Under the pieces are notes generated by a model, which did no database searches, had not been told where the DNA came from, and worked only from the letters and a program-made list of their open reading frames with translations. Position numbers and translations under genes: made by a program. DNA of 64,000 nucleotides from NCBI GenBank assembly GCA_916610825.1, contig OU744450.1, positions 24,160,430-24,224,429 on the forward strand, given 5' to 3'. Position 1 is the first letter of the stretch. Each line of letters begins with the position of its first letter. This document shows positions 7,201 through 64,000 of this stretch, one piece after another. The DNA is from Haliclystus octoradiatus. Lineage: Eukaryota; Cnidaria; Staurozoa; Stauromedusae; Haliclystidae.

Positions 7201-10200
7201 TACGATTATCAGTACAAGCGGATCCCATTTTATTGAGCCTTGGACAGTTCTATCAACACAAGTAGTGTATGATGAAAATCAAGGAAAGAGTTTTCCAATG
7301 AAACCTGTATATAACAGCCAGCTATGAAAGGTGACCATTGTATGCAGGTGACTTTTATATACAGGGTTGATTCGATAGAAATTACTGTACTAACTTTGAC
7401 AATGCAAGAGTAATCAAGGCGGAAGTTAACGCCGAAACGGTGTCCAATCAAATCAACTCTGTTCAATTAAATTTTATTATTTTCATTACGAATTTGAAAA
7501 TTCCAACTGCAAGAGTGATCATTATAAACAAGTGGTTTTTGTATAGAGTTGACCTTAATACCAGGTTTAGTTATAAAATCATGAGCCGTTGTCAGATAAT
7601 TTGACGTGTTTCTACTCTCATTGCACCTTCAGATAACGACAGCGTGAGTTGAATTACCTGGGTTGCTTGAATTTGGTCTTTAGATGTTGCATCTTTTCCA
7701 TCTGAAGAACATTTCAAAGCCTCTTGTTGGTTTACAGCATTGTCAGACAACCTTTCAGCAGTTGTAGGCCTACCTGATTCTTTTCCAACTGCAGTTGGTT
7801 GAGGCAGTCTCTTAACAAGGGACTATAAAACAAATATAAAATAAAATTGAATTCTATATTCTAATTGTGTCTATAAAACAGTCACCGTTCAACAGAATGA
7901 CCTTCTCGAGTTACAAACTTTCTTCAAACTACAATATCAATGGCGGCGACACCTTTCACGGAAATATTTTTAGATTGACAAATTGACAGCAGACACTTGT
8001 AGATTAATCCTTGTAATCTTTAATGCATCGTATTCAACCCCATAGTTTCAAGGCAATGAGAAAGATTCAAACATTTAAATTAATAAATTCAGATTATTCA
8101 GATCACTACCTCCACAGCCATGTAAGCAAAATTTAGAATATGTTTTCACAAAGATGACGTATTTGTGTTTGAAAAATATCAGTGTTTTCCCCATTAACTT
8201 TACGTATTAATTTAGAGGGGCCTTGGGACCCCATTTGCCAATGTCAAATTACAATAAAATTTGTGCACAACTTATTTTCAAAGCATTCTGAACAAGATAA
8301 TAGATGAGCCCGATAACATTTCAAACTTTCATGTTTTTTGGACCAGTCTAATGTATAGTTTATGAACGATAGACAAGTTTCACAAACATATTTTATAGGG
8401 GTATCTAGCAAAAGATTTGTCAAATAGAGCCATACATTGTTTTCGTGGTATCGATATATGTGACATAATAACAACAATTATAGTGATCATAGCAGCAAAC
8501 ATACCTTACAACTTCCATCTTCTTTAGCCGCACAATCACAGAAGAAAGACCCATATTTAGCATACGTTACATCATGATCTTTATGACATACTTGCGCACA
8601 TATTGTACAACAACCAACGCCATCATTCATTTTACATGTATGACAATGATACCAATGTTGATTCATAAAATCACGTTGCGTAACCGTGAATGTACATAAA
8701 CGGTTACAAAGTGCCTCTTCATCCTTTTCAATAATAACAATGAACAACAGACATGATGAAATATGAAAATATCGTAGAGAAACGTTTTTTAGGAAATATT
8801 CTATGTTGAAATGTTAAAATAGCCACAACAGAAACGTAAGAAAAATATCTTGAAATAAAGTGTAATCTGCATAAATGCAAGTTAAAATTGAAAATTATTT
8901 TCATTGCAGTCATCGTAATTTGCATCAATTAGAACTTGTTTGACAGTGACCTGACTACAATTAACAGTTTATAGAGTCAAAGCCAATGAAACCTGTATAA
9001 AAGATTCATCTAAAAGGTCTTCAAAAACTGGCCAACATAGACAGATGGTCTTCATATAAAATGCTGATTCAATAGAAAAATGAGGCTGCAAACAATACTT
9101 AATTGGCAACTTTAGACAGGTGGTCTTAGGCAAACTCAGACTAATCAAGCTCATGGGAAAAAGCCGCTTTTTTAATCAAATTCATAAGAGGAGTTTGACC
9201 GCGAAACTAGTAAAAGTAATGTAGACGGTGTCGCCTACCAAAGGCACCCGTATCACTCTTCTATTTCTAAATGAGTGGCTTTTTTCGTTGAGAGCAATGA
9301 TTTTAAACACTCTTTGTTGATCTCAGCCGTGACACTGCAGATCAATGTCAACAGATTTCATGGCAGATAGGTCTTGATTGTCAAAGCGCAACGATGCGTC
9401 GCAGCTAATCACAATGCAATTCCCTCTGGACCATTCCATTTGATGTTTCAGATAAAGTCAAGGCTAAGTTGACCTTAGGCTGAGTTGACCTTAGGGCGAT
9501 TTGAACCACAGTCGAAATATGATCCGACCTGAAGTTCGGTTGCTCTGCCATCTGAGCTAATCCTCCTGAGCGAAACTAGTAACTTTGTCAAGCGGTGATT
9601 TACATCTGGGTCTTTTTCACACGTCACTGTCTCCACACGTTCTTACAACAACAAAATGCTGTCACGTGACTCAAGTTTCCAATCTGTCGCATCATGCCGG
9701 TAGAGGCTCTTGCCCAAGGTAGCCTTTTCATAAAGAGTTAATTTAATAGAATAATACAGGAATAATAGAGGATACAAACATCACTCAATTGGCCATTGCA
9801 GACATGTGGTTACAGTCTTTACATTAGGTTAGCCTGTGCTTGCTTACCGGTATTCAGTTTGTGTGGAAATGACAAATAATACAACCACAAAAAAGTTTCA
9901 TACCGATTCTTCTCCGCCAGATTCATCACTGTCTTCGTCCATTTCATCATGCAAATCCAACCAATTAAGATCTTTATCTTTCAAATCTTTATCGTCCAAA
10001 TTCAACATAGATGTATCTTTTGATCCAATAACATTATGATTTAGCAAATGCAATACTTTACCAATATAACTTAATAATGCATTTGAACATGCCATCAAAG
10101 GAATTTGACGTGATTCAGATATTGTCTTGTCTGCATCAAGCAGCAGCCTGAATTGATGATTACTAACAATACAAAATGTAAGTTGAATTTTTGTGCAGTT

Positions 10201-16200: not shown

Positions 16201-19200
16201 CGCATTAATGAATGCAACTAATCTCTGATGAACTTTTAAAGGTGGAACAACGCCATCGTCAGATTTAGAAATTGATTTTGATACTGGAAATGGAGCCAGA
16301 GAAATATCCTGCCAAGTTTTCACAACATTCTTGTAAGCAGTAGGAAGTACTGGAAATGAAAGAAAAACAATTTCAATGAAACTATTTATACAGTTTAACC
16401 TGTCAAGTTAAAATTGTCAACAGTTTTCATAGCATCCTCAACATAGACATGATTACAAAATAGTCAATAGAGTTTTGAAGCCAGGTTGCATTTTTTTATT
16501 TATTTTGCATTTATCGTTTAGCCGCCAACCGGGTAAGCTAGTTTCTTTTTCAACCGGGGTGGTCGGTTTATCGGTTAGTGTTTTTTGGCGCGTATGTGAG
16601 CTTAATTGCCAGATGCCCTTCCTGACACCAACCAATGCTCCTACCAGGCATTGAACCCCAAGACCTTGCGGGCTGAGGTCCAACACCTTATCAACTGCAC
16701 TACGGCAGATAAGTAGGGATTTCATCATTTATCTGAATTGGACTCAAATAGGTTCCATTGTAATGACAATAATGACTGCATATAAATAAGGTAGTGTTGT
16801 CAACAGCTTCCCAACTTCACCTTAAAAAGTTTTGGGAAGCTGCAGAAGTGGTCGCTATAGGAAGGTGGTTGTTATAGATAGGTGGTTGCCATAGACAGGT
16901 GATTGCTATAGCAGGCTTGGCAAAATAAAGATAAAATGCTGTTAATAAATAGTATGGTAACATCATCAGGAATATGATTATGATCATTCATCATTCATAT
17001 TTCAATTCATATTATAAAACAGGATGTCAGATACCTGCAATCTGATTAGTTGATTTGTGTGTCTGGATATTCTAGAAACAACTTTATATAGTTCGAATAC
17101 AGTAAATACTTACATTCAAACACGGTATTGTTGAAATTTGATTCTTTATCTTGACCAGTGTTGAGCATTAGCAATTTACAGCATGCTTCAAATTCATCAA
17201 GATCGATTGTTCTTTTATTGGGTGAAATAGTTTCTTGAAGATGTTTTCTACAGTCAAAATAATAAAATGATTCACAAGCTCAGTTCTATACATACTTATA
17301 TGCCAGGTATATTAATATACATTGTTTTGTATGCGTAAGTGTACGTTGTCTTACTGATTGAACATATGGCTCAATACTATACAGCAGAGTTTAAATAATA
17401 TATTGAAAATCAGACAATCATGCTTGCATTTCACGCCAAGGCTATCATCAGGTAATTTATTATTAAAAACATGTCATATTGATGCGTTTTGGCATTTGGT
17501 GCTTGGATGGTGGGAGCGTATAAATAAGATTTGTGTTAGACCAGCTAGCCATTCTGTCACCATAATAAATACAAATGTATATAAAGTGCATATTATTATT
17601 GAATAGATTGCGTGATGATTGCTGTATGGCGTGAATCTCATTAATTAATTTATTATAAATGTTAGCATTGTGTTGATACCTTCAATGGTCACCAGTCCAC
17701 ACCACACATAGTCCATTGAATGGCCTACTTTTTATTGGGCTTTAAGTAGGGACATTATCAATGCTAATTACATCCTTTTGATAACAGACATTTGTTTCAA
17801 CGAAGTAGATATAGTGCGAGTTTCTTGCGCAGGGTCTGAGAAAAGATTTTACCCTTACGGAATCTCAAGTTTCTCCTAAATTTTCTTCTGAATTTTTTAC
17901 CACGATTTCCCAAAAGAAGCAATAAATATCCTTATTAATTAAAAACATTATCTAATTTTAGTGAAATCCAAGAGACATAACTGGGACAGAAATTTTAATT
18001 TTTCCTAAATAAACCATCCTCGAAATAGACATAAATACGAAATTACCATGACATTGGTCATTTTCAATTCCGAAGCCAGTAAAATCCAATTTACATCACA
18101 AACAAAAAGATTGGAATATAAATTGGGAATCCCAAGAGTTTTTTCAAGTCAGAATGTCTATTGGAATCTACTAAACGTGTTTCACAAAAATTAAAAACTT
18201 CTGATTTTTGGTCAATTTAGCTTAGACTTCCGGAATCCTAAATCCCAAGATCCCTACTTTTCTCGTACACTGTTCTTGGGTTTAGAACAACAGACATATT
18301 CAAGACATACTGATACATAACCTATAAAAGGAATGAACATTTATTAGGACATAAGATGTAGATAAAATCTTACAGAATTTCAATTTGGGTAGCAGGAATC
18401 AATTTCCAAGTAGCTTCTAATAACTGTTGACTTTGTGACGACTGTTCTTTTCCAGATAAAAATGATTTTCCTCTGCCAAAAGATTTAAGGCATACCAATA
18501 ACGCATCAGTTAACAGAACAGATTGATAGGTTAAATTTGAATTGGCAATGCATAATTCAAAACTATGCGAACAAAACTGTGCTATGAAATCAGATTGGCT
18601 GATAACTGGTAGCAATGAGTCAATTGTTAATGAAAGATTTTCACCAAAATATGACACAGCAACAGAATAGCCCTGAAATGAAAAACAGAAATATTTGATA
18701 ACAATTACAGAAAATATAATTGACACTAACTCAATATTTAACTGAGATTAAGGTTTAGGATTGTCTGAAAATAGATTTTGGCAAAATCTGATGGTATACG
18801 GGTCAAAAAGTAGGAAACCTGGAATCCTAGAATTTAGAAGGTTGGAGAAAATTCAGAAGAAAATTGATATTTTTAATGATTTATTGGAATGCACTTCCAC
18901 AAGACGTTGTAGTGTTCAGATCATTATCAACTTCTAAATGTGATATGAAAAAATCATGTAAATAGCAAATCCTTTTAAACCGCATAGTAAAAGTGTATAT
19001 ACTAGTCCATTATGTGTGTATGCTCCGATAAAAGATTTATATTTTTATAAATGAAGATACATATATCAGTCAAAATTTTTCAGTTTTAAGAACCAAATTT
19101 CGGCAAATAATTAAAAAGGCAATTATCAAAACTTAGTACTAATATCGTCAAATTATCAGACCAGTTTTTAGCAGTAAAAAACTTGATGATTTGAGGATAT

Positions 19201-22200
19201 GCGAACAGAAGCCACCGATGTTGCCCCTCAATGCGTTGCGTATTGTTTTCAATATGACTTGTGTGATGCTAGTTATGTTGGCTATACATACCAACACCTT
19301 CATCAACGTATTGACGGACACACCGGTTCAGCTGTTGGCGCGCACCTTCGTCCATCTCACGGTTTAACTGTCCGGAACAGTCATCACACTTTCTGTGTTT
19401 TGTATAAATGCAAAAACAAAACTGATTGTCTTATTTATGAAATGCTTGCAATCAGGCGGATCAAGCCAACACTCAACATGCAATCGGATTCTATAAAATC
19501 CTGGTTGTTTGTTTAATTTCCGTGTAATTGTATTTGATAATTTCCTTTGTAAACTCAAACTCTATATATTTGTAATATTTCAATTTGTATTTATATACCT
19601 GATGATGTCATGAAGATATGATTTGGCGAAACGTTGTGAAATCCCCTGGTTTTTATTGCTGTCATTTGTTACAAATATCCCAGATATACACTTTAGCCCC
19701 CCTCTCATCTCAACGGCCTAGCATCACCCTAATGAAAATTCTTACCTTATGACCTAGCAGATCTTTACTTCCGTTGACCAGTAACGGAAGCCAGTTCAAA
19801 AAGACAAGAAACTTTCCAGAATCATTAACAACCTAAAAATGATTGAGTTACAAAATTAATTTCTTACCAACACATCATACTTGTAGGTCATAAATAAATC
19901 ACAACATAACCCTTCAAGATGATTTTTACGTGATGTAAATATGTTGCTGTGAAAAAGTTTATGAGTTCATGAACGTGAAATTGAGCAATAGTTTGTGAAC
20001 TGTTCGTTTAAGGCTTCATGAACTTTTGAGCAGCTTTACGTTCATGAGCAAGTTCATGGACCGGTTTAAGAACTGTTACACTTGATAAAATTTTCAGCAA
20101 TAAAAATACAAGAGTTATTGCAACATTTTATTTAAATCTTTAACTGCCAATCCGATCGGGTTTGTTGATCAATTAAACAAAACGGAACTCCAAACTTGAG
20201 TAGAGATACTTGACTTGATGGCAAGTCTGATTCATCGATTGATCGATAAATTGATGATGTTCCCATCAATTGGATATGTTTCCATGCATTGATTATGAAA
20301 TTGTGAACGATTTGATTTGAATGGTTTGTGAATCGATAAATCATACAAAAAACTTGTTTCTTTAGCGTTTTCTTGTAAAATAAACTAGTTTATTATTATA
20401 TTATTTTTCTATTATTATTATTACACCGTAACTTACATTTTTAGTCTCTTTAAAGCTTTCAAACACATCAGATGTTGGAGGAAGGACATATATAAAATCA
20501 AGAAGGCTACACAGACATGATTTGGCTGCCAAGAATTGAAATATTGTTTTATTCTTCGTCAGCAAAGTTGACATCATTTCAAGAAGATTAGATATGATCG
20601 ATATCATACTCTTGTAATGCGCTTCATATGCATGTGCGTATACCATGCTATACATCTATAATAACAAGTATGTTTCGATTACCATAATATTCAGATTGTT
20701 CATGTTCAAATTACTACCCATATGAAAACATTTACCGGGTTCATGAACTATTCATTAATCGCATTATATTCATGTAATCGTATGCAATGTACATCATGTG
20801 TCTGTAATCATGTGCCACTCTCAGCTGCAATAGGACAATCTCGTTATTATACAATAATAAATCTATATCTACAATAATTAACCTTAGCACATTAATATTC
20901 ATCATCATCATCATCATCGTCATCATTTATTCAGAAACCTATAAGTTATACATAACTTTTTTTCAAAGGACTGATACATGTTGAATACATAGCTAAGTTA
21001 ACAGGAAAACAGACATTAAGTAATCAAGGGTTTAAATAACAGGAACGATCGTCTTGAGAAGCACGTAAGTGCTTCTCAACGAGACGTTTGAAAATAGACA
21101 TGCTTTGGACTTCCTTCATTGCAAACGGTAGATCATTCCATTTATGCGCATCACTATTCCACTAATGTTCATTATTATTAGCTATTTCTTACAATTAATA
21201 TTTTCCTAGCTAGGAATCTAGATGGAAACTTACGTCATTACTCAATTGCAGTACTTCAATTTCTGTAAGTTTGAAGAAACGTGTTCTTGTTGTTGGTATT
21301 GATTCTTTCATAATGTTCTCTGTGTTTGTATCAATAAACATTTTCAGTTCTGATTTTGATGATAATTGCAAAACATTGTGCAAAACCTATCACAAAAGTA
21401 TTGAAATGTTATGAAATAGGAACGAACATTGTGGAAAACTAATCACAAAAATATTTAAATGTTGAGAAATAGGAACTAACATTGTGCAAAACCTATCACA
21501 AAGACAAAAGTATTAAAATGTTATGAAATAGGAACAAACATTGTGAAAAACCTATCACAAAAGTATTGAAATGTTATGACATAGGAACAAATGTAACATC
21601 ATTATGCCTTTTGCATATTTGATTGGTTGGTTTATGTATCTGCAAATTGATGAACACTGCTCAAAAATTCTCGCCTTGAAATTTGAAGATAAACTTGCTA
21701 AAGAAGGATAGGGAACTACAATGTATTATAAAAATAGAAATAAAGTACCAATAAAAGCAATCTCAATTTAAGAAAGGCTAATATTATGAAGTTTTAATTT
21801 AATCTAGTTGAAATTAGAGTGAAATCATTAATGCAAAATTGATTGACCTTCTGCAATATATAGAACTAAAATCTGATTCTGAAATTTGTTTTATTTTGGA
21901 AAATGGTTACCACTTTTGAAAATGTTTTTATTTATATTTACTACACACTGAATACGTATTCTAAAATATAGCAAAGGTTTTCTGCGATCTGATTGGTTGA
22001 AAGAGCGTGAAATCAATGTAAAACCTGGCTCTGAAAACCGGAAAAAAACGCTAGTTTATGACGTTTGTTTTAAATTAGAAAAGGGTTACCACACGGTGGC
22101 AAATGTTTGTATTCATATTTACTAAACTCAAAAAAGTTGGGAGACACTCGGGAAGCTAAAAATTACTTGCTAGGAGCTCGTGATTAAATATGAATAAAAC

Positions 22201-25200
22201 ATGTCAAGTGTGTGGTAACCCTTTAATGATAGATGGTATTAATTAATTACTTCAAACAAACATCAAATATACATAATATTGATGATTAATCAGGTCTTGC
22301 ATAGTCTGTGTACAATGTACAGAACAAATTCATAGTAAAGCTTTGGTTAGGGATGATTAGCTTAGATGACAGAGCAACCGGAATACAGATTTTATCATAT
22401 CTGATTGCCTCTGGTTCAAATCCCCCTAAGGTTTCAGCTTTCCATGTTCTGATGGCGGATGGAAATAGTCCAGAGGGAATTGCACTGTGAGTATCTATGG
22501 TGCATTGACAATCAAGTCCCATCTGCCATGAAATCTGTTGAAATTGATCTGCAAGAGCATTTAATATCATTGGGGAAAAGAGCCGAGTCTCTAGAAATAA
22601 AGGAGTGGTACGGGTGCCTTCGGTAGGGCGTCACCGTCCATATTACATTTAATCACAAACTCATTAACTAACAAATGTGGATTTAATACCAAAGTTCTGT
22701 GAGTAATGAGTATGCTATTGTTTACAACTCAACAATATGTTCATAATTTAACTACAGTCGAATTTGCTTAATATCCCCCCTCTGGTACAGATGAAAAGCG
22801 GGACATTAAGCGAGGTGGGATATTGAGGTAGGATAATGAAAGTTTGTATGGAGAAAGAAAAATAGAAGTCAGTTTTATTTGGGGATATTAAGCAAGGTAG
22901 GACATTAAAAGAGGGGATATTAACCGAATTTGATTGTACATCAAAATTTGAACAGATACGTTTGATGATATGTGCACTCTAAGATGAGAATTATTTACCT
23001 GTTCAAATATCGTAACAGGGTCAAATTGATCAGCCATCATAAGATATTTGCTAATAGTAAGTAATCGATGAAGACCAACTATATTATTAATAGGTTTCAC
23101 ATCTGATAATTGGATAATAGTATCGATACACAATTTGATGATGTTATCTTTTGATTCTTTAGTAAGATTATGGAACAGCAAAAGCATAACTTGAATATGT
23201 TCAACATTGATATCTATCAAGAAGATACAAAAAAAACATAATTTGATAATTCTCAAATAACAGAAAATCTATATTTTGACATTTAATAAGTAAAACCTTG
23301 ATCGTTTTTACCCCTCTGAAAAAAATCAATGAGTTCATGAACAGTTCATAATTTTTTTTTAGGTTCATGAACAGGGTCCGACAAAAGTTTCAGCCTTTAG
23401 GAATCCTAGAGGCATTGAAACATTTTCATCTGGATTTTTGTATTGATGTTTGACCAAAAATCATTAAAAAATCCAATTTCTTCTTAATTTTCTCTAGCCT
23501 TCCGGAATCTAGGATTCCAGGATTCCTACTATTGTCGGACCCTGTTCATGAAACAGTTCATCATGAACATGAAATTGCTTGAAAGTTCATGAACACTTCT
23601 TCAGAGAGGAAGGGCCATAATTGCAAAATTCAATCCCTGCCTCTGGTTGTATTGATGTGATACATAGCCCTAATTCTCCATGGCAATATTACTTGTGGGC
23701 AATAGAATTATAATATATATGATCTGAAGCTTAATTAGAATAAGGCATGGAATTGGCTTTGCAGCTAAGAAGTCGCTCAACTGCAGCTAAATAAGATAGT
23801 TTTTGCAGCAAGTTGTCTCATAGAAGCATCTTTAATAAATAGCAGCTAAAAAGTCAGCTTACCGCAGCTAAATATATGAAATATATCATTTTCATATATC
23901 ATGAGTAAATTGCTTTTTAGATGCGGTAAAGCAAATGCTGAATAGCTTGAACTAAATAGATATGGTAAATAAGCTTTTAGATGCGGAAAAAGACCTGTTT
24001 AGCTGTAACCAATTAGATGCTGCAAAAAGACTTTTTAGCTGCGAAGATCTAAATGAATAGCTATGATGCTGCAGATACAATTATTTCTCACAGAATAATT
24101 CTTGATTGGATCCAAACCTGAGAAATGAAGTACAGATCTAAGGCTCTGATTGTTTCTCAAATAAATCTCAAGTTAAAAGTGCGAGTGTTACAGCGAGGGA
24201 TTAGCTCAGATTGTGGAGCAGCCGAACTTCGAATCGGATCATATCTGATTGACTGTGGTTCAAATCCCCCGAAGGTCAACTCAGCCTTGACTTTATCTAA
24301 AACATCAAATGAATACCATCTGAGGATGGCGGATTGAATGGTCCAGAGGGAAATGCATTGTGGGTAGCTGCGGCACATTGTTGCGCATTGACAATTGAAA
24401 CCTATCTGCCATGAAATCTGTTGAAATTGATCTGCAGTGTTGCGGCTGAGATCAGTGAAGAGCATCTAAAATCATTGCTCTTAGCGAAAAAAAGCCATTC
24501 CCCTAGAAATAGAGGAGGTGGTACGGGTGCCTTCGATAGGGCGACACCGTCTACATTACATTTATTACAAGTGCCGTTTCTCAAACGTAGACTCACCTGT
24601 CTCTGCTATTTTATCATCATCTAAATCAGTTCCAATTGAAGATGACAATGATTCAATGAATTTCTTCCATGATGTCAAAACTCTTTTTGTATCCGTTGAT
24701 TTATTTTCATTTAAACAATTTTCCTGTTCTTGTAATGCTATTTTTGCAAATATTATTAACAAATGCCTTTCCATATAAAGAGGCCATTTTCCGTTTTCTT
24801 CAATAGATATTCCTGCCTTTGTTAAGATAGATTCCTTTAATGTAATAAAAGAAACGGGATTCAATTAAAAGACAAAATAAAAAATCATTAAAAATAGAAC
24901 AGTGTAACCCGCTTAAGTGCCAGCCAAAATTGGCAAACAATTTTCATTGTTCTTATCCGAATTTGCACATATCTGCAATTGTTTAACAAGGACTTGACCG
25001 GAAAATAGTTTATATGGTTTCAAAGCTAGGTTGCAGGTAAGCGGAAATTGCAATTATCCGAATCGTAGTTACACAAGTTATAATATATCTTAAAATAATA
25101 AAAAAAATATGTTAATTAAAAATACACATTAATATGGGTTATATAAACACAAGTGCTGCGTTATGTCAGGCACGAGGATGGCGTAAGAAAATTAAGAGCC

Positions 25201-28200
25201 ACAGTGGCGAGGGATTTTTTGAAGCCTTTTTAGTGCCTCATAACGCAACACTTGTGTTTATATAACCCATATTGCACAAGAAAATGTTTAATAAAATAAA
25301 AGAAAGGGTTTATAAAATAGAAATATTCGATACGTTTTCAACAAATTTTTCACCATACATGTATGATGACGCGTATCATTCAATATTGCTGTAAATTATT
25401 ACATCTATCGTTTAATAAAGGTCGTAAATTATCAAGCGTATTGTTCAATATTTGAGAAAACCTCGAGTCGTCGAAATATGATTCCAAGCAATGTTCTTGT
25501 TTACCATAGATATATATCGTTCATCATAGCCGAATCATGATATTCGAATTCATTTCAAATCACAAATTGAAGAGTGTCTGGGTGGCGTTTTATTGATAGC
25601 GTTTCGATATTAGTGTTTTACCGAAGCTTCACTTGTTCTATTTTTATAACAATCAATACTTATAATACTTATGCAATATTGAATTGTAACAGCCTGTAAA
25701 ACCTGTAAAACCTGTATTGAAGTAAAATATAGTAAGCCAGTTTTCTCTTTATGAGTCTGGTACATAAGTAGTGTGACTGCTGTATAAGCTTATCCAAAAT
25801 GATAAATAGCCAATCACAAATCGTAAAAACAATTCCATATTGTATTATCAAACATGAAAATTCAAAATGAACAAGTAGTATGAAACCGACGATGTCTGAT
25901 CAACAACAACAATCAATACTTACAATATGCTGAATATCAATCATTCCAGCATGATAAAGTGATATAATCAAATGGCTGTGTTGACATAACAGCATTTCTT
26001 TATTCTCAAAATGAACATTCGAAGATGTTGTTTGTAAGACGAAATCAGTGATAGAGTTGAACATATCATCTGTGAGATTGTTTTTTACAACATTAATCCA
26101 ATTGTGAATCTTACATGAAGCATACAATGTAAATGAGAAATCTAGTAGGCTGCCAGCAAGGAGAACGAACTGCAAAATTAAATAGCAATCAAGAAAATAA
26201 TATTTTTGTGTAGACTAAATGTATTATCCTATTTCTTCAAACAAGAACCAGACATGAGCAGGGTCCGACAAAAGATTCAGCCTTCTGGAATCCTAAAGGC
26301 ATTTCAACATTTTCTCCTGAATTGTTTGTTGAGGTGATACCCAATAAGTTGTTAAATATCAATTTTCTTTAGAATTTTCTCTATCCTTCCGGAATCTAAG
26401 ATTACTTTTGTTGGACGCTGGACATGAGAATAAAAATAGCCTGAAATCGATGACATTCAAATTATCTGTAATGGATTTCAATGGAAAAAGGTGATAACTA
26501 GGGTTTACAAGAGGAACTAGGGTTTACATGTCTGAAGAGCCCTTTGAGAATCTCTTCAAGAACACATAGAGAAAACTCTTGAAAAATGCACTCTTGCCAG
26601 ACATTCGAGTCATTTCTAGTTATTTACTTAAAAATAAGTCTACATGCAGGCTACTTACAAAATGTTTGAATAGGTCGAAATATCATCTACTACTAATATC
26701 TGCTACTAACATCGATAGGCTGCTTTTAAGTTTTTTTTATTGTGCTTTTCAAAATATTTACAGGTCTATTTGAATGATAAACTTCTTTATTTCCTGTTGA
26801 GGTTGTAATTAAACAGCAATTTTGTTTGAGCAAGCACAAACTGTCAGACGCTGTGGTCTCAAAATTTGAAGTGATTCTTAATGGAACGCTCTATCTAGTC
26901 TTTTATATAGATCAGTGTTAACCCCCCCCCCCCAGGATCAAAAATGGCATCCAGTTGGCTATTGGGTTTGTCAAGCTATTTTCCAGTTAATATCCCAAAT
27001 ATGAGAAATAAGATCATAAACGGACCTTAAAAATCATTAAATTTTAAATATTTCTCCTTGGAGATCTTCAAGATTTACTGCGGTTGAAGTTCAATATTTT
27101 AATCAAAATTCCAGACATACAAAATGTATTCAACCAAGGCAGATTCCAGCAAGTCATTGATTCTTTCGCAATATCCATAAGTAATTACTATTGAATATCT
27201 ATTGAGTTAGCTCCAAAAAAACACACAAAGTCACAGTCAACTTACAATTTCAAGGGATTGAGAATAACTTTCACAGATTTTTAACTGCTTAGAATCTTGT
27301 GAGTTGTCCTCGTTTTCTAAGGTACCAGCAGGTGATGACATAGTTTGTTTTAACCAGCTACCAAGGAGTAGACCATCCTCTACAATACAATAGTAACTTA
27401 CATATATATATCCAAAATGGCATCCAGTTGGCTATTGGGTTTGTCAAGCTATTTTCCAGCTAATATCCCAAATATGAGAAATGAGATCATAAATGGACCT
27501 TAAAAATCATTAAATTTTAAATATTTCTCCTTTGAGAACTTCAAGATTTACTGATGATGAGGATGATATGATGATCAAGAAAATAATATATATGGCAAGT
27601 GAAACACAACAAAGAAATTCTACATTTGATGTATGCCTAGCATTAGTAGTATGTGGCCTGAGTACCAGCATTGAGGTTTTTTAGGAAACACAAGCTATAT
27701 TTAAAAAAACTAATATATACAGTTTGATTCAATAGAAAATACTACAGTGAAACCTGTATATAACAGCCAGCTACTAGAGGTAGATAAATTGACCACTATA
27801 GACAGGTGGCCTTTATATACAGTTTGATTCAATAGAAAATACTACAGTGAAACCTTTATATAACAGCCAGCTACGAAAGGTAGATAAATTGACCATTATA
27901 GACAGGTGGCCTTTATATACAGGGTTGATTCAATAGAAAATACTACAGTGAAACCTTTATATAACAGTAAGCTATGAGAGGTAGATAAATTGACCACTAT
28001 AGACAGGTGGCCTTTATATACAGGTTTGATTCAATAGAAAATACTATTTTAGACATTGCAAGAGTGACCACTATAGACAGGTGGTCGCTGTATAGAGGTG
28101 ACCTTTATAACAGGTTTGACTGTACTAAACTTCATGTGCATTAAACAAGCACTTTAGCTTATTATAGCTATGTATGCATTGTGGTGGTACTTAATTCAAA

Positions 28201-31200
28201 TATGTGTCTGTTTTCAGGGTTTACCTTCGTTATCATAGTGTAGAACAAATTGTATGGAGTCTCTTGATTGGTTTGAGTATGGGTGCGTTATGGTTTACTA
28301 TTACACAGAAAATACTGACACCAATTTATCCTGATATTGTCTCATGGAAATTATCGGAAAAGCTATTGATACGCGATTCAATTAGAATATACCAAATATT
28401 ATGTGGTTTGAATACACCTCCTCTAGAATGGAAGCAAGGTGAGCGCTGTTGTAGTGGTTTAATATTGCATTTACGTCATTGTATAATTGTCTATTGTTAT
28501 TCATTTCCTGTAAATCTATATGTGCGTAAACTGTACCACGTAACCGTTCTCTTTCGCCTCTTACTATCTTACTGTACGGTCGTGTCTGTTGTATCAAAGA
28601 GCTCTGACTGACGGCCATAGTAACCCTTAGCATCTCTCCTTGTAATGTCAGCAGACACGGCCTACCATTATCATAATAAAGAGTATCAAAATTATATGGA
28701 TTGTGTCATTATTTAATCTCCTACACTGTGTCTCTTACACCTAAACACTACACATTTTGTAATCACTGAAATCTTACTGAAAAGCTACTGAATAAAGTAT
28801 TGAATTGGTACTTGATTATATATTATAGGCTGATAAAATTGATAATACAGTGAAACCTGTAGATAACAGCCAGCTACGAAAGGTAGATTATTTGACCATT
28901 ATAGACAGGTGGCTGCTGTATAGAGGTGATCGTTATAAGAGGTTTAACTGTAGGATAAATATCACTACCTTCACTACTTTCTTCACTGCTATTTCCTTTC
29001 GATTCAATATCTTGCATACTCGCATCAGTGGCATCAACAGTTATGCATTCATTCGTTTCAGCTTTTTCAATAAGGATAGCTAACTGAACACCCTATAATA
29101 TGAAGAGAAATGAAACTAGATAAATAGGATTTCTAGAAGGAGCTGGAAGAAACTACACATCTAGTTCTTCTATAAATCCTCAAAGTCAAGGGTCCGGGGG
29201 GATTGTCCAAAGGCAATTGCATTGTAAAGTGGTGTGTCGTTGCATCAAGACAAACAAGGCAAATTTGCAGTGATATCTGTTGATACTGATCTGTACCAGA
29301 GCATCTCCTGCGAAACCAGTTCATGAACCCTTCATCTTCACAAACTTTTATGAATGGTTCATGAATTGCCATGGAAAGTTCATGAACACGTTCATGAAAA
29401 TCAGGTCATTTAGACTTCATGAACAGTTCATGTTCCTGCTTATATATATATATATGTATGTTGTAATGTATAGCCTAACCAGTCCTTTGAAAAAAAGTTT
29501 ATGTATAACTTAAAGGTTTCTGAATAAATGATGATGATGATGATGATGATGATTCGTGAACAATTCTGAGTAAATAGAGCCATATCTCTGAGATACAATA
29601 ATTCTACATTTTAGATGAATGAAAGCTCCATTGAAGTGGCAGCTATAGTAGATTTGACTGTAACCCAAACATTGAAGATCGTTGGGAAGTAATTGCACCT
29701 ACCTTATTAAACACAATATTGAAAACATCAAAAAGTACTTTTGGAATATGAAGTTTGTTGATAAGAATCTGAAGCTTTAACCAAAGATGTCCTTGTGATT
29801 TTAATGTTAGCTGATCCTGAGATAAATTATCATCTTTGTTTTCATCTAATAGATGACAGCGTCCAACTTCATCGAGCAGATGTGTGAATATTGTAACAAT
29901 TTTTGATACCAATGATACAATAATGATACACATGCCTTCAAACCTAACGGAAACAACACAACAAGATATTAAAAGTAAATACAGTGTAACCCGCTTAAGT
30001 GCAATTCAGATAAATGAAATTCACGCTTAGCTGTAACCTAGCTTCAAAACCCTATTAACTATTTTTTGGTCACGCCCTTGGTAAACAAATTCGGATAACG
30101 CGGGTTACACTGTAGTTGCAACAAAAGCATACGCTGAGGTCTAGATCATATGCCATTCTATACATATGTCTGCTATGAAATATGTTACAGTCAAACCTGC
30201 TATAATGGTCACCTCTATATAGCAGCCACCTATCTATAGTGGTCACTCTTGGCATGTCTAAAATAGTAATGAAATAACCCTGTATATAAAGACCATCTGC
30301 ATATAGTGGTCAATTTATCTACCTCTCATAGATGGCTGTTGTATGCCGGTTTTACTGTAATTGATTTTACAGTGTCTTGGCTTCTGCCAAAAGTTAACAA
30401 TAATTGCTCTTAGCCTATAGATACCTTCAGCAGGGCTACATTTTTTCAATTACTACCATCTCAGTATTCTATTCTCAAAGGTGTTCTATCAAACACTAAA
30501 TCAAAGTATCTTTGCTTTTTGGCTAGAGCATAATAGGATTGGCACATTTATTTATATGCACATTAGGGTGGTCCAAAAAGTAAAATTTCTCTGAATTTTT
30601 TTTCACAAGCTTTTCTGATGTCAAAGGGTCATATATATATAATCAGATCGAAAAAAAATAAAAAATACGATTCCGTCTGAAATATGTTTTAATTTACACA
30701 ACAGTTTTTGATTAAAAAAAAAATAGGAGTGTCTTGCGATTTTGTGAAAATCGTAATTAAAACATTTTACGACCCAAAACTCTTACCGTTTAACAAAGAT
30801 TAGTATGTACCAAATCGAAAATTTTTTTACAAAATCGGCAATCGCTGCGCCACCCCCAAACGCTGTCCTATGAGAATGAAACTTTGCATATAATGTTTTT
30901 AGACTCTTTGACATGAAAAAGTTTACGAAAAAAAATTTCACAGAAACTTTACATTTTTGGACCACCATATTGGCACATGTACAGAATGGTGCGTGAACAT
31001 GTCTTAGAGTTGTGATACATTTAAAATAAGTTTTATCCTTAAGATTTCATACCATTTATTAAGTCCAAGTAAACGTTCAACACAAGCAAGATTATTGTCG
31101 CTATGTGATACAACACAATATTGCAAACCATTCATAAGCAATTCCAATAGAAGTATTTGAAAATTCTGACTAAAAGTTGATGATACTTGTCCACCAATCA

Positions 31201-40200: not shown

Positions 40201-43200
40201 CAATTGTTCATCACTGCAAATAGAGAAAATCAATTGCACTTAACATTCAATTGACATGATGTTGTTTTAAACAGATGGAAGGAGAATATAGCAATCTCGC
40301 TTCAGGGTCCGACAACAGTTAGAATCTTGGGATCCTGGATCCCACAGAGGCTACAGCAAATTCAGAAGAGAATTGACACTTTTCTGATATAGCCTATTAG
40401 CAAAACCTCCAAAAAAAAATTGGAAATGCTGAAAATGTTCCAAGATTCCGGAAGGCTAAATCTTTTGTAGGCCACTGTCTCGCTACTCAGTGTAGGCCTA
40501 TTTTTCTATCATAGATCATAGTCTTCTTGGTCAAAGCAACTTTCAAACCTATAGTCTTTAAGTAAACAGGAGAATGTATGTTGAGCACTGTTCAAGGGAG
40601 AGGTACAATAGGCATGTGCCTAAATCTGAAGCATGTGCCCTTTTTCAGCAAGAAAATTTAGAAATCAAGACAACAATCTGTTTATAGTAGGGGTACGACA
40701 AAAGTTTCAGCTTTTTGGAATCCCAGGGGCATCTTAGCATTTTCTTTTGGATTTTTGTGTTGAAGTTTGACCAATAAATGAATTTGCTGGTCAAATTGAT
40801 CCAATTGATTCAAGGATTCCTACTTTTGTCAGACCCTGTTTATAATAGATGAAATCTATAGCTAGGCTGGTAGTAAAAATAAGTTGATCATATTATTGTA
40901 AATTGAATACTTTGAATAAAAGGTGCCTAAAATTGCTTTATATTTTATTTTAATCCAACATTGCTAATTTAAATTTGAAAGGTATTTTCAAGTGCTCGTC
41001 AAACAAAAATCCTTTGTTATATGACTGCCATGTTGTTGCGTTTTGGACCTTAAAGCCAAAAGCCGTAGTTTCACGATCATGCATAGCCTGACACAAACAC
41101 CAACAACCAATCAGTGATCAGTATCACATTTATTGATTTTGCATGAGTTATAATTGTTGAAACTTATTATGTTTTATAAAAAGCTTTTTTGGTGTTGATT
41201 TAATAAGAAAAGTCAACGAAAAAATGTTTAAATTTTTATTCATATTTTAATAAACAACGTTTCGATTGCATCATGCAATCATTTTCAAGTTAAAGGGTAA
41301 AAAATGAAGGTAACTCAATCTCTACCTCTGTTTACCGCAAGGCAACTAACACCGGCCTATTGTTACATTTCCAAAGCCATGTTGATATGAAATACAAGAA
41401 TGGACTTTTAAAGACAATGCTGAATAGAGCAAAACAATTATCATCATCAGAAGCAAATTTTATTGAAGAATGTAAACGTCTTTTAACAATTTGAAATATC
41501 CAACGTCTCATTTTAACCATATTTTAGCTAAGTTTGATTTTAACACTATTACTCAAAATGTACAAACCTTAAGTGACGATTTAATTTATAATATAATTCT
41601 ACCTGTTAAAGACCAGAAACCAGCCGACGTCATCAAACAAGACCTTTCATGGCTAAGTAACTCGATTGGCATTGAAATAAGACCAATTTTTACTAGTCCA
41701 AAGATTTTAGACCAGCTAAGACATAAAGAAGTAAAACCTGACATTTCATCCAAACAAAGCGTTGTTTACTATTTTATAGGGATGCACCGAATATTCGGCC
41801 GGCCGAATAATTAGCCACCATTCGGTCGTTTGGCCGAATATTCTGTTAAGCCGAATATCAACCCATTATTCGGCCGGTATTCGGCCTTTTCAAAGTATTT
41901 TAAAAGGTTCAAATTGATCTCTCAAGTATTTATTTCATAATTACTTAATAACGGTTCATCTTAATAACATAATTAGACATGGGTTGTGCCATTTAAATGC
42001 TCTATGTTTCTTATGTTTCACTCAAATTCTCATAGTTTTGTGTGACTTGCGAATTTTAGTGAAGCGTATTGAATATGAAGTGATTCATATCATTCCAATC
42101 TCGTTCCAAACCCTATGGTAAAATCTAATGTTGAAACAAAATACTCTAACGTCTTCATCAATTGAGTATTCTTCTTAAATGAATTAAGACGTTTTACTTT
42201 CAGAAACTTTTCTTTTGGATAAAATCAACATTTTGTAATATAAAGGAAAACGAATCACAACAAAATAATATTCGAACCCGACAAGCCAGACGACTCAGAA
42301 TGTCTTTTGCGTGTTTGAATGGGCAACACAAATCCTTCTAATTAGCATAACAAAAGGGCTCTCAGGTTATACGCCATTGATCCTATTTTGGGCTTCCGTT
42401 GCTATGACAATTAATTGATCGAACAAACATGATGATTTGCAAATCGTTCGATTGATTTTGAACATCAACGAAGTTAATAAATATCTGATGTCAAACAGAC
42501 AGTTTTAAATGATATTTCACTTGACATTATAACATTCAAACCAATGCAAGAACTGTTCTTGACTTTTGATATTCAAAGAACTTTCTCCCTATTGTTCAAA
42601 ATGGTTTGTTCGCTATTTCAAAGGAAAATCGTGCTGCCATGACAACAGAAGATCGCACTTTCATAAACATTTTCCAAAACGTTAAATGAGGCGAAAATAC
42701 AATGTTATCCAATGAAGAAAAGCACATCTAACTGGCAGATAAGATTCTGATATTTCCAGCATGCATAATAAACCAAACAAATCAATCTTGAATGACCATA
42801 ACAGACCAGGAATTGACTCAAAAATTGGCCGAATATTTGCCGAATATTCGGCCGAATACTAGACTTTTCTGGCCGAATATAACCTATTCGGCCGACGGCC
42901 GAATACCTGATTCAGTGCATCCCTACTATTTTAAGTGTGGTCAGTTCGATGCTGACTATGTTGGCTACACACACCGGCACCAACATCAACGTGTTAATGA
43001 CCATTGTTTTACGGCTGCTGGTAAACATTTAAGGGATGCCCATAACTTGGACACAAAGAACAATGACACTTTACCATTTTTTAAAGTTTTATCTCATGGT
43101 AAAACAAAATTTGACTGCTTAATAAAAGAGATGGTGTTCATTGCAAAAATTAAACCGTCGCTCAATACACAAAAGGATTCTTTAAAGTCACTAGATATTT

Positions 43201-44989: not shown

Positions 44990-47900
44990 GTAAGTAAAGG
45001 TCTACAAAATATGCAAATTCAACCGATCAAGTCTGAAATACAGAAACCAATAAAAAGACTGGCCTACTGATCATTTTAGTCCATTGTTGTCTGCACACAT
45101 GAAATTGTTCAGTCTTTTGGCCAATGTCAGTCTTTTACTGCCTAGAGACCGTATTGATTTAACTCTGAAATGTGTCTTTTTATTCAGTCTATTTTCAACA
45201 TAATTTACCTTTTTATATCTGTGTTTGGATTCATATAAAAAGTAGACAATTTGGCAGGGTTGGCACTAGAGGGGAAGCACAGTTTCTGGTTTTGGCAGAA
45301 TATTTAAATTTTGAATGTTGGGAAAGGTTGGGGACTTCATGTATGTGTTTCTTAATTCAGCCCCCTCCCAAGTCAGGGAATTTGAGGCTGGCCTATGTAT
45401 ATAAAATGAATTTAGCCTAATAAAAACTTAATATTATGTACCGGTAATTAATATAATTTAGTTATGTTTTATTCTTTCAGCTTTTAGTAGGACGTGGATA
45501 GAGTGCCGGTAACCAGGTTTTTGGTTGAAAAAGCAAGAGTCCCGGTAGTCAAATATGCATGCGCAGAGCTCTTTTCTGTCTTGAAAATATGTAAATAAAA
45601 CTTTCAATTTTCTTAAACTTTAAAGTTACATCATTTTATAAGTTTTAAAAGATATCAAATTCATTTGATAATGACATTGTGGCAAATAGGATATCTTGTG
45701 AAAACGATTCAACATTTGTCGAAGTATAGTATATGCTTGATTTAGCAGAAATGGGAAATTATTTAAAACCAACGACGCGTTTATAACGAACGATGGCCGA
45801 CGGAACATTCAAGACATTCAACATGTTAAAAATCAAATCTCACATTTTTAGACTGAACTTCTTATACTGTAAATTGCCTAAACACCTTGATCAACCATTT
45901 GTAATTGTTTTCTTTCAATAACATCAACAACAACATAGTTTCACAACCATGATAGCGGCGAGACTAGCCCTAGGCCTATACCAAGCAGGCTGGGCTATTG
46001 TTTTTATTCAAATAATAATGTAGAGGACTTCGAAGAAAACAATTAAAGTAGTGGGGCAATCCATGTAAGGTGAAACCAAAGCGTCAAAATTAAACCAATG
46101 ATTTGAGCAAAAATATGACAACTAATATCAAATATAATGCTTTTAGGTTACTAAAATCTATTTTTCATTAAGAAATTATATTATTAATGTTGAGAAAATC
46201 AATGTCTTTTATCATGCGTCGTAATGGCCGCCCTAAAATTCTACAAAAACAAAATAATCAAAATTCAAAATTTTGCGCTCTCCTCGCATTATCCGAATAC
46301 AAAAGTTATATAAATCAGTGTTATAGTCCTTGTTTTACACTATCCAATAATTAGAATTAACAGAATGAGTGTCCTTTATCCCCAAACATCAGAAATGTTT
46401 CATGATCTTCGACCGCTCGTAAGCGGGTCGCGAGAAAGTCATAAGAGTTTTGTTTACACTTCAAATTACGGCTAATTAGCATATTTGGCAGGAATTTCTT
46501 CCTTGTTGGCAAAGTCATTTATTTAATCTGGGTAGCGATTTAATAGAAGACAGCGATCTGCTTATTGATTTCATTGTCAACAATCCATCAAGTTTAGACT
46601 TGAACTCATAAAGAAATTATTTCATAATTTGCTGTGAACGTGAACAAACACTGATTATAGAGTTGTGGATGTGCAAATATAATAAGCTTCAGGAATCCAA
46701 AGGTTAATTTCATCTTAATCTTTATTACAAATCCTCTTTAAAAAAGATTAACTCTTGGCCTTCTTCGGATCTTAGCTTAGCGTTCCGCAATCTAGGATAG
46801 CAACTTTTATCAAGCCCTGGTCCCGCAACCTCCCATTTTATCGAACCCTGTTCTTAAATGACCACGTCACAATTTTTGATTTGAGAATTTTGCATCAATT
46901 AATGATAAATAGACTTTTCCATAACTCTATAAAATTAAATGATGACCATGAATGAATACATTACTGTCTCATAATGTCAATTTTGCTAAATTTGGCAAAT
47001 AAACTTGAATGATTTTTAAATTTCTAATTCCAGATAAAGTTGAATCTGTTGATTCTTTGGATTCAATTGGCATTGATTACACTGCAAAAAAGAATAAAGG
47101 TTCCTTCGTTGCATCCAACTTAGACAATGAATTTGATATACCTGATATTGATCACGACAATTTGCCAAGTTTAGAAAGTATATTAAACGAAAATGATAAT
47201 GAAACATTTCAAGTAGATGATTTAACATTAGAACAATTACCTCAAAGTAGCGGATCATTTGGCAGTACCACAAGCTTAATACCCGAATCAATTACAAATA
47301 AAAAGACACTAATTAATGGAGCAATACTTCGTCATGTGGCATTAAAAAAGATTTCTGGTCAAATGTTAGATGCATGTGCAAGAAGAGATGCTGGACTACC
47401 AACAGCAATCGCAGCAAGTTCATTAGTAGCAATCGGTACATCGCATGGTGTGGTTTTAGTTTTCGAACCTCGTGATCAAACATTAAAATTAATTTTGGGT
47501 ACAATATCTGATGGAGCCAAATATGGTGCTGTAACTGCTCTTGGTATAAATGTAGAATGTACCCGCCTTTTATCTGGTTATGCCAAAGGTGAAATTCAAA
47601 TGTGGGATCTCCATAATGGTAGCTGTTTACGTACAATTACAGATGCACATCCGATTGGCTATGCAGTACTTCATTTACAATTTACTGATGATCCAACTGT
47701 TGCTATGTGTAATGATAGTAGTGGTTCAGTCTACAGTTTAAATTTTAAACGAGTTATTACAAGAACATGTGAATCAACATGTTTCTTTTCTGGTAGCAAA
47801 GGTGAGGTTTGTACTATGGCGCCATTACATCTTCATCCTGGTATGAAAGATCATCCTTTATATGATTGTTCACTTCTTGCGATGGCATCTTTAACAAAAT

Positions 47901-50900
47901 TAATAGTTGTCAATTTAAAACCAACGCCTGTAGCAATATTTGTTAAACGTCTTCCAGGTAAACCTGATGCATTGCCTGTCCTATCATGGCAATTTGCTGT
48001 TGTAAAAGTCGAAGAAGAAGGGAAACAATTTTGTCCTGTCTTGGCGTTTGCTAGAGAAACAAAAATACATTTCATTCAAGTTTTCAAACAAAATAAAGAA
48101 TTTAAATTCAAAGCATTTCAATTTATTGAAGTTGATTATAATTTGATAGCACTTCATTGGCTTAATCCAAAAATCATTGCTGTTATTGATAAATTAGAAA
48201 GAATTCATGTTGTTGATGTCCAATCGAAAATAGAATTAGAATGCTTGGATCTCGGTGTTGTACGACTTGTTTACGGAAGTAGTTATTTCAAATCGTTATC
48301 AACAGGTGGTAATGTAAGTCAAGCTTTAAAAGCCGCTGGTGAATTTGCATGTTACCAATCTGTTCAAGTATTTAACGGACAATTATTGTTATTAGGAACA
48401 AAATCCATTAATTGTTTAACATTGCGAAATTGGTTCGACAGACTTGAATACTTTGTTAAACAAAATCTATTTCTAGAAGCTTTAGAATTAGCCTTATCAT
48501 TTTATAACGATACAGCAATGGCTGTTATTGGTCTTTCTGCAAGTAAACGAAAACGTCGAGAACTTGTTGCCGAACAAATTGTAGACATTTTATTATCTTA
48601 TACAGACGTAATGATGACTGTCAATATCCCAAGGAGTAATGATGAAGATATTCTTATACAATATTACAAAGAATCCGTGCCAGTTTGTGTGAAATATTGT
48701 TTAGCAATCAACAACTTTGATTTGTTGTATACAGACATTTATGATCGTTTTACGGATGATCACATTGCTAAGAAATCATTTTTAGAATGTTTGCAACCAT
48801 TTATTTTAAATGGTGAACTTAATTACCTTAGTGCAGTGGTCATGCAAGATTTTGTTGAACATTACGAGAAATCAAATAAATTGAAAGAAATGGAATCATG
48901 CTTAGTTATGCTAGATGCTTCAGCTGTTGATTTACATCATATGATCAAACTATGTTGGATACATGAGCTATATGATGCTGTTATATATGTATACAACCGC
49001 GGATTAATGGATTATATCACACCATTAGAGCAATTATTACGTATCTTGAATTCACAAATGGAAGAGAAGAATAATACAGCAAAGACGGAATGTACTTCAC
49101 TTGGATTGAAATTATTTGTATATATCAGTTGTTGTTTGGCTGGACGTCAATATCCTATTGGTCAAATTGACGCTTCTTTGGTGAAAGATGTTAAAAATAA
49201 TGTATTTGAATGTTTGGTTAGTCGAATAGGAAAATATTTTGTTGGTGGTGAGCAAACTTTTCCCTATTTAAGGACACTTCTTCTTTTTGATACAAGAGAA
49301 TTTTTAAATGTCTTGTCTTTAGCTTTTGAAGAGCCTGAATTTGGTCTTGATGAACATTCAATTGCTTTGGGTATGCGTTCAAGACGCCAATCAGTTGTTG
49401 ACCTTCTCATTCAGATTATGGTAAATGATTCATCGTTTTCCCCATCACACGTTGGTAGTTTATTCACATTCATCGCTCGTCAAATGGCAAAGTTTGAACA
49501 TTCAATTAAAGTTAACAAACTACTTTTCGAACAAGTATTAGAATATCTATCCAATCCAGACGATGACAGTCGTCATGAAGAACGTCAACAGGCATTACTA
49601 GATTTATTATTTGCAGGTGGATTAGGTCAATTCAACGATGCAAGATTATTAGCTTTAGCAGAAAACGCAAAATTCTACCGTGTTTGTGAATACTTGTATC
49701 AAAAAAAGCAACTTTTCCAGAAGGTTTTATCTTGTTATTATCGTGATCCAGCGCGTAGAATGCAAATCTTTAGTTATGTTGAGGAAATCTTACTGCAAGA
49801 GTCCTTTACTGACTTAGACCGGGAAGAGATATGCAAAGCGGTGCTTGATTCTATTCATGAAATGGTACTTATAGATGCAAGAAAATTATCAAGATTAATT
49901 CTTCAACACTTCCCTCAAACATTTGATGAAGTTGCTGATAAACTTAATTCAAACCCAGAAGTGCAGTTCTTATTTCTAAAGGGTGTCTTCTCACGACGTC
50001 ATCGTAATCGTGGCAAAGAAAGTCATCAAAGTAATCAATTTGAAGCATCCAATCCTGAAATTCATGAACGTTATATTGAGTTAATGTGTGCATTTGATTC
50101 AGAATCTGTATATTCTTATCTGCAAGGATCAGATGGTTATCGTTTAGAACAAACATTATGTATTGTTAGAGAGAAAAACATTATTGATGCAACAGCCTTT
50201 TTATTAGAGAAAACAGGGAATATAACTGATGCTTTTGAGCTACTTGTTGGTCATCTTGCTGGTAAAGTTTGTGCATTAGATGAAGCTTATGTTGGTTTTG
50301 ATCATCTTGATGCAGAAGAATCCATTACGTTACGAGAAGAGTTAACTACATCTCTTGTTCATGTAATTAAATTTTGTCAAAGATGCTCACCCCATATGGA
50401 AAAAGAAGATCGGAATGCAATCTGGTTTCCTCTATTAGAAACAGTTATGTCACCACAGCGTCGAATTAAAGATATGACTTCTGAGCATTTCTTAGCATTT
50501 AAAGAATTCACAAAAACTGTCCTTACAAGTATGATGGGACATATAGCTTTACCTGATGTTTTGCAAACAATAATGAATAATCCTGCCTATAGTTCTGGTA
50601 AATTTGGTGAGATGAAGGAATTACTATTAGGAATGCTTGATACATATACTTATGAATTAACCCTTTTAGAAACAACCAATAATTTATTGGGTGATGATCT
50701 ATTTAATCAATATAAAACTCAATATAAAATACTTTCCAAAGGTGTCGTAACAAGGAATTTTTATTGTCAAGCTTGCAATCAAAACTTAAAATCACTTATA
50801 AAAACCAAGGGAAATGGTATATTGATTTTTAAATGCTCACATATATTTCATAAATCATGCTTAGAAAGTGTTATTGGTTATGGAGAAAAAACAACTTGCA

Positions 50901-61809: not shown

Positions 61810-62061
61810 CTATTCCATTAAAGCTATAATTACCATTAAAAATACACCAAATAATAACGCCAATATTTCTTTAATAGATTGCTTGATACTACTATCTTTT
61901 AATAGTTCAGGAATAACAGAAACTGTAGCGATATAAATAAAGCCACCAGCAGTGAAAGGTAAGATCCAAGCTGATGCCGCAGTTCCAATACCATCAGCCA
62001 TCAAACCACAAAGTGTACCTGCGAATGCTCCTGTTGCAGTTGTCAACTGGAGCATCATAGC
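61810..62061 (-). CDS. SLC39A7: SLC39A7 terminal exon
   Basis: 84 codons including TAG: from [11 protein letters not shown] through three hydrophobic segments to IIALME. Acceptor TTATTTTCAG. Confidence 0.95.
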
Positions 62062-63859: not shown

Positions 63860-64000
63860 CTGAAAAGTACAAATACAATAACATACAGATCAGGGTCCAA
63901 CAAAAGTGGTGATCCTAGATCCAGGAAAGCTCGAGCAAATTTGAAAGAAAATTGATCATTTTCCAATTTATAGGCCAAACGTCAACAAAAAATTCAGAAG

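What the first reader, a model, noticed from the sequence alone, without database searches (positions are those of the whole stretch)
28218..28438. Orphan DOLPP1-like exon, opposite strand, inside a UBR4 intron
A single exon-like segment with a good acceptor and donor encodes the C-terminal third of dolichyldiphosphatase 1, including the motif His in [12 protein letters not shown] see no companion exon in the surrounding kilobases. It is bracketed by copies of one MITE family (27714-28122 and 28848-28950), so capture or transduplication of an exon by repeats is a plausible origin. Retained intron borders argue against a processed retrocopy.
Basis: partly seen in the sequence, partly recalled or inferred. 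Interest (0 to 1): 0.75.

Follow-up and report, generated by a model that had tools for sequence, protein, structure and literature searches.

The report
Captured, broken copy of one exon
A small piece of a sugar-lipid recycling gene (one exon with bits of its introns) was copied from an intact gene 271,000 bases away into an intron of another gene, most likely during DNA repair that started in a shared repeat, and has since been broken; it is an ordinary kind of genomic debris with an unusually readable origin.

Summary
The exon-like segment at 28218-28438(+) is real and its borders are exact. It is a copy of the sixth of seven recognised exons of an intact DOLPP1-like gene on the same chromosome, 271 kb away on the other strand. 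Five of the other six exons were found only at that gene; the 12-codon last exon was too short to test. Intron sequence came along on both sides (about 430 bp in all), so it was copied as DNA, not from mRNA. A 2-bp insertion shifts the frame about 55 codons in, and a 276-bp repeat landed just behind the donor site. The copy lies antisense in an inferred 1.6-kb UBR4 intron. On the left, homology runs into a MITE at the same place in both loci, but the window's MITE is of another subgroup except for its last ~20 bp; on the right, homology stops at 28816, within a few bases of the end of an old repeat. Best explanation: break repair in which an end inside a UBR4-intron MITE annealed to the MITE in the DOLPP1 intron, copied ~430 bp and was joined without visible homology: a member of the known class of repair-mediated duplications. 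Exon divergence is below intron divergence, but a neutral copy is not clearly excluded.

The parts
28218..28438 (+). copy of DOLPP1 exon 6 (221 nt; parent 219 nt), frame broken by a 2-bp insertion near 28386
   Evidence: 6 substitutions in 219 aligned sites, 3 silent and 3 amino-acid changing, plus the 2-bp insertion; splice borders kept
28104..28217 (+). last ~20 bp of the donor's MITE plus donor intron 5 sequence: left part of the copied segment
   Evidence: identical to the parent at the MITE 3' end, including a T found in 1 of 52 other MITE copies; 28123-28217 differs at 11 of 95 sites
28439..28449 (+). donor intron 6 sequence, first part, with GTGAGC donor site (parent GTAAGC)
28450..28725 (.). 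276-bp repeat inserted into the copied intron piece, flanked by CTGT at 28446-28449 and 28726-28729; the parent has the uninterrupted site
   Evidence: 39 other near-full-length copies, 90-96% identical, among the 40 candidates scored of 3323; 3 of 8 copies read in the right orientation, this one included, show an exact 4-bp duplicated flank
28730..28816 (+). donor intron 6 sequence, second part; homology to the parent ends here. Holds an old ~70-bp repeat (about 28744-28813)
   Evidence: 90% identity to the parent; both intron 6 pieces together differ at 8 of 97 sites; repeat ends compared
27714..28122 (+). MITE array (about 100-bp units), joined in register to the donor MITE's 3' end
   Evidence: last unit 97% to the family majority and 88% to the parental MITE; parental MITE in a 7-row clade, 90/98, without the window's
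28846..28952 (+). short, internally deleted MITE of the same family, outside the copied segment
   Evidence: ends TACAGTGAAACC...GGTTTAACTGTA; partial matches to the parental MITE
28969..29092 (-). inferred UBR4 exon upstream (in UBR4 sense) of the intron
   Evidence: splice signals and phase agree with the next exon; no Pfam match of its own
27246..27379 (-). inferred UBR4 exon downstream (in UBR4 sense) of the intron
   Evidence: splice signals and phase; no UBR4 Pfam match of its own

Best explanation
A repair-mediated duplication. Shown: exon 6 of an intact DOLPP1-like gene (C6:23917567-23917785, minus strand), with ~114 bp to its left and ~98 bp to its right, exists a second time, antisense inside a UBR4 intron, as a single frame-shifted exon also hit by a repeat insertion. 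Inferred: a break arose in or beside a MITE array in the UBR4 intron; the broken end annealed to the related MITE in DOLPP1 intron 5; synthesis ran ~430 bp through the exon into intron 6; the new strand was released and joined to the other side of the break without visible homology there. The copy has no gene of its own and most likely no function.
For: Parent with seven recognised exons joined in phase with GT-AG borders, scoring over Pfam's PAP2 cut-off. In a genome search with the joined protein, 9 matches: 6 in the parent (one per exon 1-6), 2 in the window's copy (its two frames), 1 weak elsewhere (27%, E 0.4). Intron sequence copied on both sides. MITE at the same position in both loci, yet at 10 sites the parental MITE carries a letter found in at least 6 of 52 other copies that the window's lacks; a tree puts the parental MITE in a 7-row clade (90/98) without the window's; the one shared rare letter lies ~18 bp from the MITE's 3' end. 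No homology to the parent beyond 28816. Size, exon content and opposite orientation have a precedent among vertebrate repair-mediated duplications (PMC2671141, abstract and passages).
Against: The AU test that holds the two MITEs together gives p 0.096 although log-likelihood falls by 30.5, and the 90/98 branch misses the tool's 95/80 mark, so later conversion of the window's MITE after a plain duplication is not formally excluded. No empty site was available. The published duplications kept for analysis were closely linked (table heading: less than 5 kb apart); this donor is 271 kb away. Exon divergence (6/219) is below intron divergence (19/192, Fisher p 0.003), which a simple neutral copy explains only in part (P 0.13 to 0.05).
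Confidence: 0.62

Rival explanations
1. Plain small segmental duplication that carried the parental MITE along, after which the window's MITE was overwritten by gene conversion from, or exchange with, other array copies.
For: MITE at the same site and in the same orientation in both loci, and homology continuous from MITE through exon; AU test not below 0.05; related arrays lie on the same chromosome.
Against: Needs a second event; the three window units are 92-99% identical to units of two other arrays but 88-91% to the parental MITE; the switch falls where a MITE-primed junction predicts.
Confidence: 0.22
2. Transduplication: a mobile unit, either a MITE pair or an unrecognised element ending at 28813-28816, captured the exon and carried it into the UBR4 intron.
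For: MITEs of one family on both sides in the same orientation; homology ends within about 3 bp of the end of a ~70-bp repeat that occurs at four other places.
Against: The 29 bp between the end of homology and the right MITE do not match the DOLPP1 intron and the donor shows no MITE there; no third copy of the exon among the candidates scored (40 of 305; 9 of 9) or of the right flank with its MITE side (6 of 6); among 43 loci compared (41 MITE loci, window, parent region) only this pair shares masked-repeat-adjacent sequence.
Confidence: 0.09
3. The exon copy was, or still is, used (spliced into an antisense transcript) and was kept by selection for part of its life.
For: Exon 2.7% against intron 9.9% divergence (Fisher p 0.003); both splice sites kept; the frame from 28219 stays open to 28608.
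Against: A constrained parent exon explains part of the contrast, and intron polymorphism in the donor population (not tested) could add to it; a neutral copy is expected to show 11-14 changes against 6, P 0.13-0.05; three amino-acid differences, one at a Gly also present in the recalled human sequence, and a frameshift. No expression data were available.
Confidence: 0.05
4. Remnant of a complete second DOLPP1 gene that lost its other exons.
For: None beyond the exon itself.
Against: Apart from this segment, matches between the window and 29.3 kb of the parent region are scattered and none exceeds 304 columns; no second copy of exons 1-5.
Confidence: 0.02

Closest known systems
Repair-mediated duplications (Pace et al. 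2009, PMC2671141; abstract and passages seen)
   Same: Short (up to 619 bp there, ~430 bp here), same chromosome, donor left in place; includes a full exon (ACSBG2 exon 7) inserted in an intron in opposite orientation
   Different: Donor 271 kb away instead of closely linked, and in another gene; annealing inferred within a dispersed MITE family; host genome here is unnamed
Filler DNA after DNA-transposon excision (rice, PMC4423477; abstract seen)
   Same: Foreign sequence inserted beside DNA transposons
   Different: No excision footprint was shown here; the genes here (UBR4, DOLPP1) are read as animal-type from memory, not tested
Transduplication as in C. elegans Turmoil-1 (PMC2572040; abstract seen)
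   Same: Gene fragment next to transposon ends
   Different: No mobile unit around the fragment was shown, and no further copies were found

Membership tests
Repair-mediated duplication | insertion of 50 bp or more copied from elsewhere, donor left intact | tested here: met
   ~430 bp copied, donor gene complete in its recognised exons
Repair-mediated duplication | junction signatures (microhomology, filler or deletion) and no poly(A) | tested here: inconclusive
   left junction in shared MITE sequence; right end GAT at 28814-28816 may be microhomology or true homology; no poly(A) after 28816; filler and deletion cannot be seen without an empty site
Repair-mediated duplication | empty orthologous site | not testable with these tools
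   the tool states that this genome has no relatives held
Repair-mediated duplication | donor closely linked (as in the published analysed set) | tested here: not met
   271 kb apart; a trait of that set, not a requirement of the mechanism
Transduplication / Pack-TE | fragment lies inside a unit bounded by terminal repeats and a target-site duplication | tested here: inconclusive
   MITEs on both sides, but copied DNA ends 29 bp before the right one and the left MITE is not the donor's; homology ends near a repeat's end; a target-site duplication around the block was not tested
Processed retrocopy | intron-free, poly(A) | tested here: not met
   intron sequence on both sides
DOLPP1 (PAP2 family) | complete PAP2 domain in one reading frame | tested here: not met
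   one exon, frame broken, PAP2 match under cut-off; the parent scores over it, E 6e-18

The most novel reading that the evidence does not exclude
MITE arrays in this genome act as annealing points that seed copies of neighbouring exons into other genes' introns over hundreds of kilobases, and this exon copy was for a time used and constrained before its frame broke.
Probability: 0.07. Interest if true: 0.5.

Novelty: new member of a known kind. Interest (0 to 1): 0.25.

Why it matters
It is a clean example of how one exon can be copied with its splice sites into another gene's intron, with a readable junction in a shared repeat. If the junction reading holds, it shows dispersed MITEs serving as annealing points for exon shuffling without any transposition of the exon. 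By itself it changes little: a single, broken, probably unused copy.

Tried and rejected
Nested gene: no other DOLPP1 exon in the window. Processed retrocopy: intron sequence present. Broken assembly of the only DOLPP1: the gene is present elsewhere and the copies differ by 3 to 12% by region. Haplotype duplicate of the region: no match longer than 304 columns with the 29.3-kb parent region apart from this segment. Habitual capture by this MITE family: no second case among 43 loci, a small part of the 4361 and 3685 first-look candidates. Known RNA in the inserted repeat: none with ARAGORN; Rfam gave 3 weak snoRNA matches in 26000-31000, all under their gathering scores and none inside the copied segment. 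A Helitron-like end was considered because the parent reads CTAG near the right junction; the window reads CTTG. In one search one of the two relatives, and four of the TE copies, were set in the wrong orientation, so I redid it: two of four relatives end at 28813, one reaches 28822 and one stops at 28804 by BLAST, so the old repeat ends about there; no Helitron test was made beyond that. Structure prediction and fold search were not run: the exon copy is broken. Pfam's bacterial-toxin name for one UBR4 exon (E 0.17) is under its cut-off and taken as chance. A PDB search with the exon found nothing at E 1; with the joined parent protein it found 6 chains of other PAP2-type phosphatases, best E 5e-7. 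The first MITE count used copies picked by likeness to the window's MITE; repeated with 26 copies from loci fetched by the parental MITE and 26 others. One search used parent exon borders off by two bases; one search replaces it. Papers: five searches, listings only; then PMC13317346 passages, PMC2572040 abstract, PMC2671141 abstract and passages, PMC4423477 abstract. The search with DOLPP1, duplication and intron listed 3 papers, whose titles and abstract beginnings do not name such an exon copy; I did not open them.

Full report
What is there. In the window's own genome (262 Mb in 33 contigs) its DNA was found in two places: here and at C6:23917556-23917887 on the minus strand, 271 kb away. 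That search scored 40 of 305 candidates, and its other 39 matches are to the repeat that starts at 28450.

The parent. 29.3 kb around the second place hold a DOLPP1-like gene of seven recognised exons in order and in phase, with GT-AG borders. The joined 230 residues match Pfam PAP2 at E 6e-18. The start codon was not settled; an in-frame ATG lies upstream of the first recognised exon. The name DOLPP1 rests on a recalled human sequence (51% over 78 residues for the exon in question, E 2e-23). Pfam PAP2 gave 9 matches in the genome (13 of 13 candidates scored): one is this parent exon, one the window's copy, and the other seven lie elsewhere and were not examined. A search with the joined protein gave 9 matches: six in the parent (exons 1 to 6), two in the window's copy (the two frames of the one exon) and one weak match elsewhere (27%, E 0.4). 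The 12-codon last exon was not listed and its copy number is untested.

The copy. Homology starts in a MITE, runs through 95 bp of intron, the exon and 11 bp of the next intron, is interrupted by a 276-bp repeat with CTGT on both sides, and goes on to 28816. The parent has the uninterrupted site, so the repeat came after copying, or sat in the copied allele. The exon differs at 6 of 219 sites: three silent, three changing the amino acid (parent Gly, Gly, Thr; window Ser, Ser, Ile), all before a 2-bp insertion in the window. The insertion puts the last part of the exon in another frame.

Its surroundings. UBR4 on the minus strand is supported by Pfam E3_UBR4_N at 22891-23268 (E 2e-11, profile 735-824), by sub-threshold matches at about 24634-24846 (656-725) and 29646-30005 (396-484, E 0.0068, not listed), and by a UBR box at 8490-8813 (E 2e-6). 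The two exons next to the segment, 28969-29092 and 27246-27379, are inferred from splice signals and matching phase; neither has a UBR4 Pfam match of its own. The intron so defined is 1589 bp.

The left junction. Parent and window have a MITE abutting the same intron base. If the MITE had been copied along, the two should be each other's near kin. The window's MITE is 97% identical to the family majority and 95% to its nearest copies; the parental one is 88% identical to the window's. Of 23 letters that differ, 10 are parental letters shared with at least 6 of 52 other copies, 4 are sites where the parent has the majority letter, and 9 are rare in the parent. In a tree of 54 rows on 163 columns, the parental MITE sits in a 7-row clade (90/98, not starred by the tool) without the window's. 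Against this, the AU test for holding the two together gives p 0.096 with a log-likelihood difference of 30.5, and the bootstrap had not settled. From 28104 to the MITE's end the two are alike, including a T present in 1 of 52 others. The simplest reading is a junction within the last ~20 bp of the MITE.

The right junction. Parent and window differ at 28813, share GAT at 28814-28816, and then part. The short MITE at 28846-28952 lies beyond. The copied intron holds an old repeat, about 28744-28813, with relatives at four other places (80-86%); by BLAST two of the four end at 28813, one reaches 28822 and one stops at 28804. So homology to the parent ends within about 3 bp of that repeat's end. 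This may be chance, or the repeat may have guided the second joining, or it may be the end of an element not recognised here. I cannot decide, and lowered confidence for it.

Age and constraint. Introns differ at 19 of 192 sites, the exon at 6 of 219 (Fisher p 0.003). With equal clocks, a neutral copy and a constrained parent, 11 to 14 exon changes are expected; six or fewer have a chance of 0.13 to 0.05. Intron polymorphism in the donor population, untested, would add to the contrast. I do not claim selection on the copy.

How it compares. Vertebrate repair-mediated duplications are short, closely linked, intra-chromosomal copies of up to 619 bp with signs of synthesis-dependent strand annealing; [quoted passage not shown] This case resembles them in anatomy, with a far donor and a MITE as the likely annealing point. 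I file it as a new member of that kind; the empty-site criterion could not be tested and the junction criterion is inconclusive on the right.

Verdict. A real, well-read observation with an ordinary explanation: one captured, frame-shifted exon without sign of function.

Noticed in passing
47009-51253 (+): Long open frame of 1415 codons that looks like VPS8 with a RING-like C-terminus (name recalled, no search run).
   Followed up: no
61813-62100 and 63615-63914 (-): Open frames that resemble parts of a ZIP-type zinc transporter (recalled resemblance, no search run).
   Followed up: no
19190-19513 and 42792-43289 (+): Two open frames with YVGYT...HQR motifs that look like GIY-YIG endonuclease fragments of mobile elements (recalled).
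   Followed up: no
27714-28122; L011 1233-1908; L012 1503-1879: MITEs of this family form tandem arrays of about 100-bp units at several places on the chromosome; one array (L012) lies within 1 kb beyond the window's end.
   Followed up: partly
about 26941-27080 and 27413-27560: A direct repeat of roughly 140 bp lies on both sides of an inferred UBR4 exon; seen by eye in the raw sequence, not measured.
   Followed up: no
28450-28725: 276-bp high-copy repeat with TGTAG...CTACA ends; 3 of 8 copies read show an exact 4-bp duplicated flank; the 39 other near-full-length copies scored are 90-96% identical, which suggests recent activity.
   Followed up: partly
28744-28813: Old ~70-bp repeat in DOLPP1 intron 6 with four other relatives in the genome; its end nearly coincides with the right end of the copied segment.
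   Followed up: partly
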